Shown here one piece after another: positions 3,171 through 10,020 of a stretch of DNA of 10,531 nucleotides. The translations under genes were made by a program, and so were the position numbers. Position 1 is the first letter of the stretch; each line of letters opens with the position of its first letter. The DNA is from Negativicutes bacterium (lineage in GTDB: Bacteria; Bacillota_C; Negativicutes; Sporomusales_B; JARLHX01). The stretch spans positions 1 to 10,531 of the forward strand of contig JARLHX010000429.1 in NCBI GenBank assembly GCA_031292035.1. The letters are read 5' to 3'. The notes below the pieces were generated by a model. The model worked only from the letters and a program-made list of their open reading frames with translations. It was not told the origin of the DNA and made no database searches.

Positions 3171-3364
3171 GGGGGCGCCAGGCATGGCGCGTAGCGCCGT
3201 GACTGGCGCTGTTCGGCTCACTGTGGTGGTGAAATCGGACGACTTGGAGGTGAAAGTCCTCTACACACCCGGCAAGGGGAAGTGTTAGCCAGAGGCAAGG
3301 GTGTCGCGGGTGACTGCGAATCTGAAGGAAGCCCGAGGCAAAATGCTGGGCTGACGAACCCAAA

Positions 3365-3531
3365 GGCGGCACAAGACAACTGGGCATCCCCAGCGTCGTG
3401 GATCGCTTGATCCAGCAGGCACTGCTGCAACAGCCAGCGTTTGAAACTGATGCTGAATCGGGAAAAGAGCCGCGTAGCACGGCCTTGGGTCTGCGATTAC
3501 TTGGGTTATGGGATGAGTTGGCACAAGCAGC
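3365..3531 (+). pseudogene. group II intron reverse transcriptase, two fused fragments
   Basis: Two non-adjacent pieces of an intron-encoded RT are joined here. The first (3365-3433) reads GGTRQLGIPSVVDRLIQQAL, the N-terminal RT block usually written as LGIPTVxDRVxQ. The second (3432-3531) reads in another frame as QRLKLMLNREKSRVARP followed by VCDYLGYGMSWHKQ, which comes from well after the catalytic YxDD motif. The palm domain between them is missing and the junction at about 3431/3432 shifts the frame, so no active protein can be made. The second piece is duplicated base for base at 9838-9937. Confidence 0.85.
3432..3531 (+). repeat. 100-bp direct repeat, left copy
   Basis: This stretch matches 9838-9937 at every one of its 100 positions, in the same orientation. 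Identity starts at AGCCAGCGTTTG (preceded by C here, G on the right) and ends at GCACAAGCAGC (followed by A here, C on the right). It is RT coding sequence of the group II intron. The repeats bracket the whole lanthipeptide island with an offset of 6406 bases, long enough for homologous recombination. Confidence 0.97.
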
Positions 3532-3559
3532 AAAAATCAGGAACTTTCGATCAAAAAAA

Positions 3560-4288
3560 TTATTCGTTATCAGAAATTAATTTCTCCAGATATTGCCCGT
3601 TGGAGTTTATAACGGCCTTATAAATACTGTAAGCCTCCATGTCACAAGCGTTAGCCGATGCCAAAACTCCATCATGTAAGTGCATGAGCTCGCCGTTCGG
3701 AATGAACATCATGATAGGGGAATGTGTGGCGATAATAAATTGTGAACCCTGTTTGGATAACTCAACGATTCTAAGTGCCAGGCTGAGTTGGCGAGAGGGG
3801 TGCAAGGAGGCTTCGGGCTCGTCCAATATGTAAATGCCATTGGCTTTGAATCTGTTTTGGTAAAGTGACTCCATTGCTTCGCCATGAGAGAGGGTATGTA
3901 GGTCCCGCCCTCCGTAATAGGACTTTATTTCAGGGTCGAAGCTACCCGCACTGTCCAATCGCCTCACTTCTGAGCTTAAATTATAAAAAGTTTCCGCCCG
4001 ATAAAAGAAAAGATCTTTCTCTTTTCGATAGCCTTTGGAAATAATAATGTGGTTGTGCAGATCTGAGTGGGTGGATTCTGTATTGAATCTGAAGTTTTTA
4101 CCTCCTCCTTCAGGGTTGCAGCCCAATTTGACGGCAATGGCCTCCAGGAGTGTGGATTTTCCTGCGCCGTTATCTCCAGCGATAACGGTTATGGGATGGT
4201 TCAGATCCAACGGAAAAATACCCGCGATTGGGTTAGCCGGAAACGTGTCGGCCTTGAGTCGTATGGATTTAACGAATAGATTGTTCAT
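3560..4288 (-). CDS. stand-alone AAA/ABC-type ATPase, COG3910-like
   Basis: This 242-residue soluble protein has a complete ABC-like ATPase core. The Walker A is GDNGAGKST (residues 38-46), a signature-like motif is LSHGE (133-137), the Walker B is YILDEPEASL (153-162), and the H-loop is ATHSP (His189). The segments FFYRAETFYNLSSEV and SLYQNRFKANGIYILDEPEA match the small stand-alone predicted ATPases I recall as COG3910, not the nucleotide-binding domains of exporters; the family's role is unknown. It is the last gene of the lan operon. Its start overlaps the end of the second membrane-domain gene by 20 bases and has only a weak ribosome site, so it is probably translated by coupling. It might energise the two ATPase-less transporter proteins upstream, give immunity, or be unrelated cargo. 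No clear terminator follows: the T-run after the stop has no GC stem. Confidence 0.85.
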   Translation of the reverse strand: MNNLFVKSIRLKADTFPANPIAGIFPLDLNHPITVIAGDNGAGKSTLLEAIAVKLGCNPEGGGKNFRFNTESTHSDLHNHIIISKGYRKEKDLFFYRAETFYNLSSEVRRLDSAGSFDPEIKSYYGGRDLHTLSHGEAMESLYQNRFKANGIYILDEPEASLHPSRQLSLALRIVELSKQGSQFIIATHSPIMMFIPNGELMHLHDGVLASANACDMEAYSIYKAVINSNGQYLEKLISDNE

Positions 4289-5162
4289 GAGTATAGTTGA
4301 AAACCCTGTGTAATGAATTTTTTGTTCCGATCAACGACAGCGCGATTTGTATGGAATGGTTGGCGCCAAGTGCAAACATTCCTATATAGCCTAGGTAATA
4401 AATCAAATCAGCTCCGAGTGTTTTTGGAGAAAGTGTGGAGATAAGGAATAGTGATATGGCGATGATGACAGCTATGAAAATTTCAGGGCCGCTGCTGAGA
4501 TAGATACTGATTTTTTCATATCGATATTTGGTGCCGATAGCGTTCTTTAGGTGATGATTGCTCATGATCATTTTATGATTGAAGTGGCGAAGGCTTTCTG
4601 AAGAAGCTTGCTTTAGCTCAATAATAGAGGTTTTATATCGTTGTTCTTGTTCGATTTCGGTTGTGTACGCGTGTGTTATTTTTTTGGAGGAGTGGGTGAC
4701 ATGGATATATGAGAAGGCGAAGAGTGCTAATAAGGGAGGCGCCATAAAGAGATTTTCAAGAATGAGCATGGAGAATGTAATTATAGTCAGACTGCTCGCG
4801 CCTGCCAGTTCAACGATTTGTATTGCGCTTGAAGCGATGCGTTCGGAGTCTTCTTTTATAAGGGTGGCCAGTTTTCCCTGGTCAGTTGACAATATATTAT
4901 CATAAATATATTCAATTATCAGGAGCCGTATTTTTGATTTTATATATTGATTTAGCGTTTCGGAGAAGCACTGCGTAACGCTTTTTAGCGAGAAAACCGC
5001 GATCAATAGCGCTATGGTTAAAAAAACCTGGTCAGGTTTTGAGATTTCCTTAATGTTTATACTTATAATATAAGGTATTAGAAATTGTAGTAGTGCTGTT
5101 GTCAGCGATAGCACCAAGCTTGTAATGATGAGCGCTCGACAAACTCTTATTATTTTAGTCAT
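4269..5162 (-). CDS. ABC exporter transmembrane domain without ATPase domain (second subunit)
   Basis: This 297-residue membrane protein has about six hydrophobic segments (near 9-33, 45-62, 120-138, 139-157, 225-245, 252-277), the pattern of an ABC exporter membrane domain. Between the second and third segments it has a coupling-helix-like stretch (QGKLATLIKEDSERI, 95-109) that resembles exporter intracellular loops. It ends soon after the sixth segment: no Walker A or B is present, although LanT-type exporters normally carry the ATPase in the same chain. I prefer the ATG at 5162. It lies in an ATGACTAA overlap with the upstream gene's stop, has GAG nine bases ahead, and gives a protein matching its partner in size. 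A longer frame to 5240 would add 26 residues that merely overlap the partner gene. Confidence 0.8.
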   Translation of the reverse strand: MTKIIRVCRALIITSLVLSLTTALLQFLIPYIISINIKEISKPDQVFLTIALLIAVFSLKSVTQCFSETLNQYIKSKIRLLIIEYIYDNILSTDQGKLATLIKEDSERIASSAIQIVELAGASSLTIITFSMLILENLFMAPPLLALFAFSYIHVTHSSKKITHAYTTEIEQEQRYKTSIIELKQASSESLRHFNHKMIMSNHHLKNAIGTKYRYEKISIYLSSGPEIFIAVIIAISLFLISTLSPKTLGADLIYYLGYIGMFALGANHSIQIALSLIGTKNSLHRVFNYTHEQSIR

Positions 5163-6036
5163 GTGCGCCATCTCGTTTGTGTAATAAACGCACCCTTGAG
5201 TGTCTGTAAAAAGCTTCAGGGGTTGAAAAATATATTCCAACCAAAAATCTAAGTGGTATTAGTATGCGATCAATATACAGGGTTGACGCGATTAGCTCGC
5301 CTAGAGTTAAAGTGTTGGCCGTTACGAGTGTGCTTCCGATATATAAAATCGCAGATAGGCCAATCAGCGAAGATAATCCAGAAATTGCATTTAAAGATGA
5401 TATGTTTAACTGTGTGCGCCATAGTACGTGAAGTACGAGTGCTTTGTGTTTTTTGAATTTTGTAAAAAGAGGTCTGTCTTTGGTTTTCGTTCTGGATAAT
5501 ATTTTGCTGATGAGAGATGTGTTTTCTTCTATGTATTTTCCATAAGCCGTCTTCATTTTTTTCTGAGTCAAAAAATAAATTAAAGAGGCGAATAAAATAG
5601 CCGCAGTTGGCGCTATGGAAAGCGAGGGCTGATAGCTAAATATTGCGATGAAGGCAATGATTATTGCGGTGAGGCTCGTACTAACGTCATAATATAGGCT
5701 GTGATGCAGGTAGATGGAGTTGTCCGTGTCGTTATCAATGTACTCGATAATATCCCCCTCTGATGGGGAGTTTTTATTGTGCTTAATCAGGACCTCTAGA
5801 GACCTTTGTTTTGGTTTCATTCTTGTTGAAGAGTTGGTGTGCGCTAAATAAATGTTGTTGACTAGTTTTAAGCAGGGCGCGAGGATAAGACCGCTGCAGG
5901 CGATTAAAAGATAGGAAAGTTGTAGTTGGTTGTGTGCGTGGTAGTGGTCGATAAGTTTTCCCAAAAAAAAGGGGGTGCTCAAGTTTATGCACGCAGCGAC
6001 ACCGCCAAGGCCGATAAAACGGAAATTTTGAATCAT
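5155..6036 (-). CDS. ABC exporter transmembrane domain without ATPase domain (first subunit)
   Basis: This 293-residue protein also has about six membrane segments (near 5-28, 40-63, 119-136, 138-156, 218-240, 250-272). The first contains the exporter-like NLSTPFFLGKLIDHYH. An intracellular-loop motif, EGDIIEYIDNDTDN (93-106), corresponds to the usual GEIx-x-x-xxD stretch of ABC exporters. No C39 peptidase domain precedes it and no ATPase domain follows. Its start shares one base with the lanM stop (TAATG), so it depends on coupling; the next gene starts within its last codons. With its neighbour it could form a heterodimeric pore for the modified peptide. Family membership is inferred from topology and loop motifs, so homology to a different ABC-like membrane family is possible. 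Confidence 0.8.
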   Translation of the reverse strand: MIQNFRFIGLGGVAACINLSTPFFLGKLIDHYHAHNQLQLSYLLIACSGLILAPCLKLVNNIYLAHTNSSTRMKPKQRSLEVLIKHNKNSPSEGDIIEYIDNDTDNSIYLHHSLYYDVSTSLTAIIIAFIAIFSYQPSLSIAPTAAILFASLIYFLTQKKMKTAYGKYIEENTSLISKILSRTKTKDRPLFTKFKKHKALVLHVLWRTQLNISSLNAISGLSSLIGLSAILYIGSTLVTANTLTLGELIASTLYIDRILIPLRFLVGIYFSTPEAFYRHSRVRLLHKRDGAHD

Positions 6037-8984
6037 TATTGTAAGTAGTCCATTTGGTGGGTGAGAAAAGGAAATTTAAACGATTCATTTAAAACCCCGT
6101 GAGCACCTAAAATGGCGCCCGTTTTACCCACCCATAGGCCTAATGGATCGGCCGCTCTTGTGCGTAGCTCTCTTGTATCGTGCTCTGCTAAGAGAGATGT
6201 ATTTAGCCAGGTGTAAACCCTTTGATCGAGCAGTGACGGAGGGTAGACGCTCTTTATAATATTGAGTAGGCCATAGGCGCCATGGCAAATCGAGTCATTG
6301 ATAGGGCGCTTGCGCTGACGCAGGTTTTCGTAGCTGAAAAAGGAGCAGGGTGGATTGTTTCTAATGAACTCCAATGCCTCCGGGACATGATGCTCCGAAA
6401 AATATTGGAGAATAAGATAGTTTCCTGGTAGTCCATGGCTCCAAGAGAACTCTCCATTTGTTGACTCTGACCTTCTGCGATAGTCCGGCCAGTTCTTAAT
6501 GTTTTTATCATATTGTTGCAACTCCCAGTCCAGAAAGTCTACAAAGGTATTGTAGATTTTTTGATTCTTTGAAATGGTTCTGTAAAAATAAAATATTGAA
6601 TAGGCGCAGCCCATGACACCATGAGAAAGCCCCGAAAGAAGTGAGTCGTTACGAGTTGTAATTGATCTGTCAAATTGTACAAGACGTTTGCCGTTTAGTA
6701 GCACCAGCTCTGAATCGATTTTTTTGTATAAGTTACATGCTAGTTCACGAAAGTCATTGTCTTTAGTCAGTTCGTATAGCTTGGTCAAAACACTAAGAGT
6801 GCCATGCATTCCTGAAAGGAGGTCCGCCCCCCAAAAATATTTTTGCCACCAATCTTCTGAGATCGCACTATGGAAGTAGCTTTTGTATTGCGACAATAAT
6901 TCGTCGTGCCGGTTGTCCTCGAAATATTTCAGGGTTATGATCAGCGGGAGAACTGAAGATGAGAGGCCAAAATGTGAGCCACCTAAGTGTGTACCTCTAT
7001 TATGAAGCTTTTTGTTAACCCGATTGTATGCTTCATTCAATATATTCAGAATGCTTTCTTTTGGAATGGGTTTGTTTTGATGTATCATTGCTAAACCATA
7101 AGCCATCCCCGATAGACCATAATACAGATCCTCTCCAAGCTCAGAGTACTCGATATATCCACCTGGTGATGCATGAAATCCATACCAGAGGCCATTATTT
7201 GAAAGCTCATATGAGATTTTTTCTATTAAGAAATCTATGTTTGAATTTTGGGCGAATCTTATGTCTTTAAGTTTTTCTTGAATAGAGGAACACGTATCGT
7301 TGATATTGTCTTCTTTTCTAAAAGTATACGTTGTTAGCTTGCGATCATGCTCGTACATATACCGCATAGCGGTCAGCGTATTGCTTATTTGTGATATCTC
7401 GAAACGGCGTCTGGCCTCCGTAAAGTTTTCAATGTAGCTAATACTATTTGAAAGCCCGTCCAGATAGCTACCGGGCGGCAAGTGCCCCTTTCCTGAGTAA
7501 TGGGGTTCGGAAAATGAAAGTTCCCCAACGCAGCTTTTTGCGTAAGGAATATCAATATTCAACAGTGCATTGACTTCCGCAGGTAAAAAACCCACTGCCG
7601 GCGCATTATCGTTATCAAGGATTTTCGTCAGAAAAGCTTTTCGTTTTTCCGTTGAACACATCAGGGACGCATGAAGCGAACACTGAATTGCATAATGGTA
7701 AGTGGCAGTAGGTCGGGGGACGTAGCGGCACGTAAGCCCTTTGAATGATCGAATTTTTTTGATGACATACGCCTGATGTTTCTTTAACGTTTCGAAGAAG
7801 CAAGTGAAACCTTCCTGGATTTCTCTTTCATATTCCCACGGGCTGACGATGCAGCCATTAAGGTATAAGACGTTTTTTCCAGGATATATTTTTACGCCGT
7901 CCGTGCCAAATCGCCCATTATCCTTATCATCTTCCAAGTGCTGATACAAGTTGAGGCTTACATATTGTTCTTTTAATCCGCCCAAAGCGCTTAAGTCTGC
8001 CCCTATGCCATCTGTACCCTTCCATGTCCAATTGGGAAGAATGCTGGTTTTGGCGCTATTCCAGCGAACTTCCTTGGGAATGCTACTAATGTTCAATACG
8101 CAATAAAAAATGGTTTCTAGATCAATAGGGATAGGGTGGCTTGTATTGCAAATCAGATTGTCGCATGTAATGTCGGATGTTGTGAATGCCGTACAGTATC
8201 CTAATAAAAAACCGGCCCGTCTATAATAGGTCTGCACGTCCGCAATATCGTTGGCGGGCAATTGTGGAAAATATTTGGCCCAGCCGTGTGTTGGATGAAC
8301 TATGTATAAAGGGATTTTCCATTCTGAATAGTGACTGTCAGCTTTTTTTGAAAGGTACTCCAAAAGAATTGAGGCGCGGTTTTCAATGTCAAGATTTCGC
8401 GGCTTGTAAACGACCTTGCTACCATTTGTAAATGTTAAAGTGCAGGCGGTGAGCGAGCCATTATGGGTTTCCCCCTCGGAGGGGGTGCACTCAAGGAGTA
8501 AGTGAGCGGAGCTCAAACTGGTTAAAGCTTTGAATCCGGGTTTGTCCTCTGTTAGTCGCAGGGCTAGTAGGTAAGTCTGATCGATGAAGTTATCGGTTAT
8601 TTTTTGTAGGGTTCGCGTTAATTCTGGATATGACTCAAGAATATTAAGAAGGTATTCGTTGTTTTTTCTAAGTATTGCGTAATGCTCGAATACGCCAAGT
8701 TTGTGGGGTTTAATTGTTTGATTTAATATGTCTCGTTCGACAGATAGTACATTCTGCGCGGTGTTCGTAATACGAGTTGAGAGGTTGCCGACGTAACCAT
8801 TTATAATGGCCTTGCCTTCTTCGTGATCGAGCTTCTCTATTTGAGTCAGGTTTCTTTTAGTTTTCTCTACGTAGTAAGCTAGAAATGGCCAGACAGGGCA
8901 GTCGGTAGTTAGATTTTCTGCGGAGGAATTAAGCGTTAAGAAATCTATGGCTGCCGAGGCGGTAGCACCTTGAGCATCGTTCAT
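6036..8984 (-). CDS. lanM: class II lanthipeptide synthetase LanM
   Basis: This 982-residue bifunctional enzyme should phosphorylate and dehydrate Ser/Thr of the precursor, then add Cys thiols to form (methyl)lanthionine rings. The dehydratase half shows VVYKPRNLD (Lys194), an active-site stretch TSDITCDNLI (Asp271, Asn276), IPIDLETIF (Asp288, Glu290) and CRYVPRPTATYHY (Arg420, Thr426). The LanC-like half starts near residue 600 with the repeated Gly motifs YYGLSGMAYG, LLSGMHGTLS and LLSGLSHGVMG (His788). The zinc site retains Cys900-His901 (SICHGAYG), but the usual first cysteine is Ser849 (FSWSHGLPG). The expected His of DxHxxN in the dehydratase is Thr273. Both changes are direct readings with in-frame surroundings. 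The start is backed by AAGG (8994-8997) nine bases upstream. It lies 65 bases after lanA and its stop overlaps the first transporter gene. Confidence 0.95.
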   Translation of the reverse strand: MNDAQGATASAAIDFLTLNSSAENLTTDCPVWPFLAYYVEKTKRNLTQIEKLDHEEGKAIINGYVGNLSTRITNTAQNVLSVERDILNQTIKPHKLGVFEHYAILRKNNEYLLNILESYPELTRTLQKITDNFIDQTYLLALRLTEDKPGFKALTSLSSAHLLLECTPSEGETHNGSLTACTLTFTNGSKVVYKPRNLDIENRASILLEYLSKKADSHYSEWKIPLYIVHPTHGWAKYFPQLPANDIADVQTYYRRAGFLLGYCTAFTTSDITCDNLICNTSHPIPIDLETIFYCVLNISSIPKEVRWNSAKTSILPNWTWKGTDGIGADLSALGGLKEQYVSLNLYQHLEDDKDNGRFGTDGVKIYPGKNVLYLNGCIVSPWEYEREIQEGFTCFFETLKKHQAYVIKKIRSFKGLTCRYVPRPTATYHYAIQCSLHASLMCSTEKRKAFLTKILDNDNAPAVGFLPAEVNALLNIDIPYAKSCVGELSFSEPHYSGKGHLPPGSYLDGLSNSISYIENFTEARRRFEISQISNTLTAMRYMYEHDRKLTTYTFRKEDNINDTCSSIQEKLKDIRFAQNSNIDFLIEKISYELSNNGLWYGFHASPGGYIEYSELGEDLYYGLSGMAYGLAMIHQNKPIPKESILNILNEAYNRVNKKLHNRGTHLGGSHFGLSSSVLPLIITLKYFEDNRHDELLSQYKSYFHSAISEDWWQKYFWGADLLSGMHGTLSVLTKLYELTKDNDFRELACNLYKKIDSELVLLNGKRLVQFDRSITTRNDSLLSGLSHGVMGCAYSIFYFYRTISKNQKIYNTFVDFLDWELQQYDKNIKNWPDYRRRSESTNGEFSWSHGLPGNYLILQYFSEHHVPEALEFIRNNPPCSFFSYENLRQRKRPINDSICHGAYGLLNIIKSVYPPSLLDQRVYTWLNTSLLAEHDTRELRTRAADPLGLWVGKTGAILGAHGVLNESFKFPFLTHQMDYLQ

Positions 8985-9049: not shown

Positions 9050-9232
9050 TCAGGAATAGGTCGCATTGCAGCAGGTGTTCCAGCATTGAGTGCAACAGCT
9101 TGTGCACGGTAAGGTTCCACTGCTCGCGGCGGTTAGATTGCTATACGCTTGAATAACGAGCGCGGATATTGGCGCAATTGCTTCAAGTACTACGGTTCTG
9201 TTGTTTTTAATTGTTTCAAGATCGATTTGCAT
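9050..9232 (-). CDS. lanA: lanthipeptide precursor LanA (Cys-rich core)
   Basis: This 60-residue peptide is encoded directly upstream of lanM on the same strand. The N-terminal part (about 1-38: MQIDLETIKNNRTVVLEAIA and on) is acidic at first and then hydrophobic, as expected of a leader. The tail, from about residue 39, is packed with ring-forming residues: cysteines at 43, 46, 47, 50, 54 and 55, and Ser/Thr at 40, 44, 45, 48, 53, 58 and 60 (TLPCTSCCTQCWNTCCNATY, 40-59). No GG or GA leader cleavage site is visible; AASSG at 35-39 is the likely border region. I chose the ATG at 9232 because GAGG (9239-9242) sits six bases ahead; a TTG four codons earlier would overlap this ribosome site. The assignment rests on the neighbourhood and composition; I do not recognise a named family. 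Confidence 0.85.
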   Translation of the reverse strand: MQIDLETIKNNRTVVLEAIAPISALVIQAYSNLTAASSGTLPCTSCCTQCWNTCCNATYS

Positions 9233-9242: not shown

Positions 9243-9258
9243 AATTAGTATGATCCAG

Positions 9259-9746: not shown

Positions 9747-10020
9747 ACGTTTCGTGCGCTATACCGACGATGCGAACATCTATATGCGCAGTTGCCGTGC
9801 AGGCGAACGAGTAATGGCCAGCGTCGAGCGTTTCCTGAGCCAGCGTTTGAAACTGATGCTGAATCGGGAAAAGAGCCGCGTAGCACGGCCTTGGGTCTGC
9901 GATTACTTGGGTTATGGGATGAGTTGGCACAAGCAGCCAAAACTGAGGGTGGCGAGCCTGAGCCTGCACCGCCGTATACGGAACCATACGTACGGTGGTG
10001 TGAGAGGACGGCGGCTGTGA
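9747..10020 (+). pseudogene. group II intron reverse transcriptase, internal fragment with YTDD motif
   Basis: From 9754 this frame reads VRYTDDANIYMRSCRAGERV, then MASVERFLSQRLKLMLNREK, then SRVARPWVCDYLGYGMSWHK. This is the catalytic RT block 5 and the following region of a group II intron maturase, with YTDD in place of the commoner YADD. Everything N-terminal of it is missing and a foreign frame ends at 9745. After KLRVASL (about 9955) the frame runs directly into intron domain V, so the thumb and maturase domains are deleted too, and the last residues are read from ribozyme sequence. Positions 9838-9937 are the right copy of the 100-bp repeat. No functional protein is possible. Confidence 0.85.
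9838..9937 (+). repeat. 100-bp direct repeat, right copy
   Basis: This is identical over all 100 bases to 3432-3531. Here it lies in frame with the preceding YTDD block, so this copy keeps the natural RT context on its left. The left copy instead sits at a deletion junction. On its right it continues naturally into KLRVASL and the intron 3' domains. Confidence 0.97.

What the first reader, a model, noticed from the sequence alone, without database searches (positions are those of the whole stretch)
3560..6036. Split lanthipeptide exporter with no ABC ATPase domain, paired with a COG3910-type ATPase
The sequence shows two consecutive genes of about 295 residues, each a six-helix ABC-exporter-like membrane domain that stops before any Walker motif. 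A stand-alone ATPase is translationally overlapped to the second. Known LanT exporters are single chains with a C39 peptidase, membrane domain and ATPase domain. The inference is that the ATPase powers, gates or protects this exporter, which would be a new transporter arrangement. A plainer reading is that the exporter borrows an ATPase from elsewhere, or that the true ATPase gene was lost at the island's edge.
Basis: partly seen in the sequence, partly recalled or inferred. Interest (0 to 1): 0.8.

Follow-up and report, generated by a model that had tools for sequence, protein, structure and literature searches.

The report
Split lantibiotic transporter with odd ATPase
A soil Pseudomonas carries a five-gene cluster for a modified peptide whose pump is split into two membrane halves and a separate ATPase of a kind not usually linked to transport; most relatives in which the peptide-making enzyme is broken or gone keep the pump genes, which suggests that the pump protects the cell from the peptide.

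Summary

permA-permB-ATPase keeps its order in 12 of 12 Pseudomonas loci found (all three full-length in 10). The five genes also occur intact in two other species, so nothing was lost at the island's edge. LanM is intact in 3 of 12 loci, broken in 3, absent in 5, unscorable in 1. Two genomes lacking LanM still constrain the cassette (pN/pS 0.18).

Best reading: a three-part transporter with LanFEG-like logic, chiefly for self-immunity, perhaps also export. That the ATPase drives the membrane pair is inferred, not shown. Against it: the ATPase outlives the permeases in three genomes, and a relative sits in the haemocin operon without membrane domains. New variant of a known kind.

The parts
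9050..9232 (-). LanA-like precursor peptide, 60 aa from ATG (64-aa frame from TTG at 9244); core PCTSCCTQCWNTCCNATYS, no GG leader site
   Evidence: close relatives in L033, L034, L035, L037, L038
6036..8984 (-). class II lanthipeptide synthetase LanM, 982 aa, open throughout
   Evidence: TIGR03897 386.6 bits against cut-off 304; PF13575 and PF05147
5155..6036 (-). permA: stand-alone ABC-exporter membrane domain, 293 aa, no ATPase domain
   Evidence: PF00664 E 4.4e-10; its family profile matches Sav1866 (E 1.3e-5), HlyB (4.3e-5) and, weakly, PCAT1 (0.01-0.02) chains
5701..5760 (-). permA ICL1-like segment, residues 93-112 (EGDIIEYIDNDTDNSIYLHH); residues 101-112 are the most conserved 12-residue window of the protein
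4269..5171 (-). permB: second stand-alone ABC-exporter membrane domain, 300 aa from ATG at 5171 or 297 aa from ATG at 5162
4827..4880 (-). permB ICL1-like segment, residues 95-112 (QGKLATLIKEDSERIASS); residues 100-111 are its most conserved 12-residue window
3560..4288 (-). stand-alone ABC-class ATPase, 242 aa (GDNGAGKST, LSHGE, ILDEPEASL, ATHSP motifs); AAA_21/AAA_15 best, recalled as COG3910
   Evidence: AlphaFold2 pLDDT 90; alignable with exporter ATPase domains over 181 columns, E 2.9e-16
3304..3457 (+). group II intron D1-D4 fragment at one edge of the island
   Evidence: RF02001, 44.6 bits against gathering score 32
3432..3536 (+). 105-bp direct repeat, left copy
9838..9942 (+). 105-bp direct repeat, right copy (99% identical)

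Best explanation
The three genes encode one ABC-type transporter split into three polypeptides: a heterodimer of two exporter-fold membrane domains (PermA, PermB) and, by inference, two copies of the stand-alone ATPase docking on their cytoplasmic loops (2:1:1). Its cargo is the lanthipeptide made by LanA and LanM of the same operon. Its main job is self-immunity, pumping the peptide out of the membrane or cytoplasm as LanFEG does; in the few strains with an intact LanM it is also the likeliest export route, because the two other intact clusters hold no other transporter. After LanM is lost, the cassette stays useful as protection against neighbours. Shown: gene anatomy, membrane-domain fold (permB by model, permA by profile), constant order, persistence and constraint without LanM. 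Inferred: that the ATPase powers the membrane pair, the stoichiometry, the cargo, and that immunity is the selected function.
For: Order and orientation permA-permB-ATPase in 12 of 12 loci; all three full-length in 10 of 12. In the loci printed, neighbouring genes overlap or lie within about 10 nt. Between the flanking genes of L037 and L038 only the five genes were called, plus one 80-aa frame of unknown status in L038. The most conserved 12-residue window of permA (101-112) and of permB (100-111) lies at the ICL1 motif, which faces the ATPase in known exporters (recalled); and, for the motif against Sav1866, 82. The ATPase aligns with exporter ATPase domains through its core and passes the PF00005 cut-off (29.6 against 25 bits). 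LanM is intact in 3 of 12 loci, broken in 3, absent from the locus in 5, not scorable in 1; of the 8 broken or absent, 6 keep all three cassette genes. L039 has a LanM C-terminal remnant just before permA (tblastn E 1e-5 and 1e-8). Between L040 and G097, both without LanM, the cassette shows 33 non-synonymous and 56 synonymous changes, pN/pS 0.18, Fisher p 9e-16.
Against: The ATPase's best families are AAA_21 and AAA_15, and its closest solved sequences are retron/PtuA-, AriA- and OLD-type ATPases; the structural match is a tie between transporter, UvrA and SMC ATPases. No conserved glutamine was seen at the Q-loop place. It outlives the permeases in G002, G363 and G367. Its relative HmcB sits in the haemocin operon with a C39 peptidase and a weakly barrel-like protein but no membrane domain. 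Of 9 more distant solo relatives fetched with flanks (L076-L078, L080-L085) 8 gave a call, and no permA or permB relative (BLASTP E 1e-3) was among the five genes on either side; those neighbours were not scanned against Pfam. In four annotated plasmid relatives the tables show no exporter membrane gene beside it; one has an ABC transporter pair about 4 kb away, and many neighbours are hypothetical. Over a wider ICL1 span the conservation is not exceptional (ranks 42 of 293 and 89 of 297). In L041 the ATPase is mostly gone while both permeases are intact.
Confidence: 0.5

Rival explanations
1. The ATPase is not the motor of the membrane pair. PermA and PermB use an ATPase domain from another transporter, or act without one, and the ATPase has its own protective or regulatory role as in other members of its family.
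For: Best families AAA_21/AAA_15, and defence-type ATPases among the nearest. Intact ATPase without permeases in G002, G363, G367; G363 and G367 ATPases are 79% identical with synonymous sites saturated. HmcB in an operon without membrane domains.
Against: 12 of 12 permA loci have it (or in L041 its remnant) directly downstream. The copies of G002 and G367 sit behind permB remnants, so they come from the cassette. Both membrane domains keep the ATPase-facing motif as their most conserved stretch.
Confidence: 0.25
2. It is the producer's exporter only. Strains without LanM lost it recently and the cassette is simply on its way out.
For: The intact clusters L037 and L038 show no other transporter. 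Decay is visible: L039 permB frameshifted, L041 ATPase truncated, G002 and G036 remnants. LanM of this family was found in 4 of 398 genus genomes, all four with the cassette.
Against: 6 of 8 loci with broken or missing LanM keep all three genes open. L040 and G097, with matching upstream regions and no LanM, differ mostly at synonymous sites in all three genes.
Confidence: 0.15
3. The whole cluster is decaying and inactive, in the window too: the product is not made and the transporter does nothing now.
For: LanM broken or absent in 8 of 12 loci. LanM has WSHG where LicM2 has WCHG, a recalled zinc-ligand Cys, in 5 of 5 rows that cover the site. Intron fragments bracket the island.
Against: All five genes are open in the window, L037 and L038. 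dN/dS is below 1 in every printed pair with a usable estimate (0.075 to 0.354).
Confidence: 0.1

Closest known systems
LanFEG and CprABC lantibiotic immunity/resistance transporters
   Same: One separate ATPase plus two six-helix membrane subunits (2:1:1 thought likely for NisFEG), encoded in a lantibiotic cluster (LanFEG) or in a resistance operon thought to be linked to it (Cpr); expel the peptide (passages of PMC5786555).
   Different: The membrane subunits here have the exporter (PF00664, PCAT1/MsbA) fold, whereas LanE/LanG are ABC-2-type (recalled); the ATPase is AAA_21/AAA_15-like rather than a LanF-type ATPase.
LanT exporters and PCAT1
   Different: No C39 peptidase, no ATPase domain in the chain, two different membrane chains, and no GG site in the precursor.
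McjD (microcin J25 exporter and immunity protein)
   Different: McjD is one chain with its own ATPase domain (recalled).
Haemocin operon (plasmid p250, hmcD-C-B-A-I)
   Same: HmcB is a relative of the ATPase (48-50% identity) and also sits in a bacteriocin operon. The record names HmcD, the structural and the immunity protein; the names HmcC and HmcB are recalled.
   Different: Its partners are a C39 peptidase and HmcD, which is not an exporter membrane domain (sub-cut-off outer-membrane barrel match).

Membership tests
LanT exporter | exporter-type membrane domain | tested here: met
LanT exporter | N-terminal C39 peptidase domain | tested here: not met
   no PF03412 match in permA or permB
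LanT exporter | ATPase domain in the same chain | tested here: not met
   chains end after the membrane domain
LanFEG immunity transporter | separate ATPase and two different six-helix permeases in a lantibiotic cluster | tested here: met
   six helices modelled for permB only
LanFEG immunity transporter | permeases of the LanE/LanG (ABC-2) kind | tested here: not met
   permA is PF00664, permB has the PCAT1 fold; that LanE/LanG are ABC-2-type is recalled
LanFEG immunity transporter | gives immunity to the cluster's peptide | not testable with these tools
   only indirect: persistence and constraint without LanM
ABC-exporter membrane domain (PF00664 fold) | complete six-helix fold with ICL1 motif | tested here: met
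   permB by model; permA by profile; motif
ABC transporter ATPase subunit (PF00005) | passes the PF00005 cut-off | tested here: met
   29.6 bits against 25, but AAA_21 scores 65 and AAA_15 63.8
ABC transporter ATPase subunit (PF00005) | Q-loop glutamine and canonical LSGGQ signature | tested here: inconclusive
   LSHGE at the signature place; no conserved Gln near the Q-loop place, but the local alignment is uncertain
ABC transporter ATPase subunit (PF00005) | couples ATP hydrolysis to a membrane domain | not testable with these tools
   no complex prediction available
COG3910 | match to the COG model | not tested
   no COG library here; the label is recalled from the NPEGG, YGGR.LH and SHGE pattern

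The most novel reading that the evidence does not exclude
An exporter-fold membrane heterodimer is driven by an ABC ATPase from the AAA_15/AAA_21 (COG3910) side of the family, otherwise seen here as solo genes or beside DNA-repair and phage-defence ATPases: a third architecture for lantibiotic immunity beside the LanFEG/Cpr and Bce types, and a case where a class that one annotation pipeline lists as non-transport powers a transporter.
Probability: 0.42. Interest if true: 0.8.

Novelty: new variant of a known kind. Interest (0 to 1): 0.6.

Why it matters
If the ATPase drives the pair, transporter annotation that discards this ATPase class (COG3910 is a negative rule in TransAAP, PMC9973855, passage read) overlooks a kind of transporter, and membrane domains without an ATPase domain may have hidden partners. 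It also gives a Gram-negative lanthipeptide system in which immunity seems separable from production, with natural strains that lack LanM and keep the cassette, so the immunity question can be tested directly.

Tried and rejected
A canonical ABC ATPase beside permA in some relative: none in the 12 loci. In all 12 the gene after permB is this ATPase or its remnant, and in nine the flanking genes leave no room.

The L039 permB-ATPase single frame as a natural fusion that proves the pairing: set aside. The reading departs from the family in the last helix of permB, so it looks like decay or a sequencing error.

HmcD as a membrane domain: rejected; only a barrel match below cut-off (E 0.00095, 19.8 against 28.7 bits).

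Stand-alone permA relatives outside Pseudomonas: in 390 order-level genomes all 8 other matches lie in frames of 562-756 codons, as full exporters do; none in plasmids or viral contigs. The protein search found 2 relatives of permA and, besides the window's own, 2 of permB; it only sees relatives that share exact words.

Solo ATPases in G363 and G367 as independent genes: a permB remnant is clear in G367 (tblastn E to 1e-12). In G363 it is only a 33-aa frame judged by eye; tblastn at E 0.01 found nothing there.

permA against permB by profile: weak (probability 6%, E 0.006); the profiles are shallow.

Papers: no held paper was found that describes this cassette. Ten searches gave listings with starts of abstracts; passages were seen of PMC5786555, PMC8719888 (which mentions a Pseudomonas LanM cluster without details of transporters) and PMC9973855. 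The original haemocin papers are recalled and were not seen.

A structural library listing does not exclude unlisted families.

Rows dropped: the L038 LanM slice was out of frame and L036 does not reach the WSHG site, so 5 of 7 rows count. In one search only pairs at 62% identity or more were printed, and pairs with saturated synonymous sites gave no ratio; L041 was left out for the ATPase and L039 for permB. In one search locus L080 gave no ATPase call. The tree used 63 rows chosen from more; its bootstrap had not settled. A LanM hit of 77 residues in L024 (E 6e-4) was taken as chance, because the whole-genome search of G299 found none. LanM absence in L039, L040 and L041 was tested only within the fetched loci. 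Plasmid records H9 and H15 carry no annotation and were not used.

Full report
What is there. On the minus strand the island reads LanA-like precursor, LanM (982 aa), permA (293 aa), permB (297 or 300 aa) and an ATPase (242 aa). In the window LanM and permA overlap by 1 nt, permA and permB by 8 or 17 nt, and permB and the ATPase by 20 nt, as in a translationally coupled operon; in the relatives printed the genes overlap or lie within about 10 nt. The island has 0.37-0.47 GC in a genome stretch of about 0.60-0.65 and is bracketed by a 105-bp direct repeat and group II intron remains.

Relatives. That makes 12 distinct loci: window/G000, L033, L034, L035, L036, L037, L038, L039, L040, L041, G097 and G299. 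In 12 of 12 the order is permA-permB-ATPase. permA is full-length in 12, permB in 11 (L039 is frameshifted), the ATPase in 11 (L041 is truncated), and all three in 10. Ten of the 12 sit beside the same cytochrome c gene, nine of them with the acetyl-CoA hydrolase gene on the other side (L036 ends at its contig edge); neither gene is in the window or L033. These two gene names are my reading of the sequences, not a family search.

LanM and the cassette. LanM is intact in the window/G000, L037 and L038; broken by a stop or frame change in L033 and L034 and shortened by about 120 residues in frame in L035; cut by a contig end in L036; and absent from the locus in L039, L040, L041, G097 and G299, the last two also by whole-genome search. 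Among the 8 broken or absent, 6 keep all three cassette genes. L039 still has the last stretch of LanM just before permA. LanM of this family occurs in 4 of 398 genus genomes, all four with the cassette; LanMs in eight more genomes are distant (22-26% identity). Between L040 and G097, whose upstream regions match and which both lack LanM, 33 non-synonymous and 56 synonymous differences give pN/pS 0.18 (Fisher p 9e-16; each gene p 0.0025 or less); dN/dS is 0.29 for permA, 0.08 for permB and 0.10 for the ATPase. The genes have thus been kept under constraint without the synthetase. That favours immunity over export alone.

Results against the simple picture. The ATPase persists without permeases in G002 (permB cut to 92 aa), G367 (permB remnant) and G363 (a possible remnant by eye only); in G036 only an ATPase remnant is left. 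G363 and G367 ATPases are 79% identical while synonymous sites are saturated, so the ATPase has been under constraint, though how long the permeases were present is unknown. In the ATPase tree (63 rows) the cassette ATPases and these copies lie in one clade of 39 rows (96/87) in which the rows that carry an organism name are Pseudomonas; HmcB of the haemocin plasmid lies outside it, with two proteins named Acinetobacter. In the haemocin operon HmcB stands with a C39 peptidase and a weakly barrel-like protein, not with a membrane domain. Of nine more distant solo relatives fetched, eight gave a call and none had a permA or permB relative among the five genes on either side; four annotated plasmid relatives showed none beside the gene, one having an ABC transporter pair about 4 kb away.

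Mechanism. I think the likeliest unit is a 2:1:1 transporter: PermA and PermB form the channel, two ATPase copies dock on their ICL1 segments, and the peptide is expelled. In strains with an intact LanM the same machine probably also exports the peptide, because L037 and L038 have no other transporter in the cluster and LanA has no GG site for a C39 exporter; C39-containing proteins do exist elsewhere in the window's genome (3 places). The arrangement, one ATPase with two six-helix permeases in a lantibiotic cluster, is that of LanFEG (PMC5786555 passages), but the permeases are of the exporter fold and the ATPase of another class. The step from gene linkage to a working complex is inference.

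Verdict. The pairing is well supported by synteny, not by direct evidence of contact. Function most likely includes immunity. I file it as a new variant of a known kind (split immunity transporter), not as a member of LanT or LanFEG.

Noticed in passing
window 6036-8984: LanM of this family has WSHGLPG where LicM2 has WCHGAPG, so the recalled first zinc-ligand cysteine of the cyclase domain is replaced by serine (5 of 5 rows that cover the site). Ring formation may be unusual.
   Followed up: partly
window 9050-9232: The precursor core is cysteine-rich (six Cys) and nearly invariant (CTSCC.QCW..CC.ATY) in six loci, even where LanM is broken.
   Followed up: no
window 3304-3536 and 9838-9942: A group II intron piece and a 105-bp repeat bracket the island, suggesting that recombination between intron remains brought it to this site; G168, the L033 genome, has the same place.
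   Followed up: partly
L039:9873-11471: permB and the ATPase are read in one 532-aa frame after a frame change near the last permB helix.
   Followed up: partly
L072 (plasmid p250): The haemocin operon pairs this ATPase type with a C39 peptidase and HmcD; what the ATPase does there is unclear to me and would help here.
   Followed up: partly
L079: G036 keeps only an ATPase remnant at the same chromosomal site, a late stage of loss.
   Followed up: no
L019: The genome given as the window's own differs slightly from the window (cassette and LanM proteins 99% identical), so the window seems to come from a close strain; all five genes are open in both.
   Followed up: no
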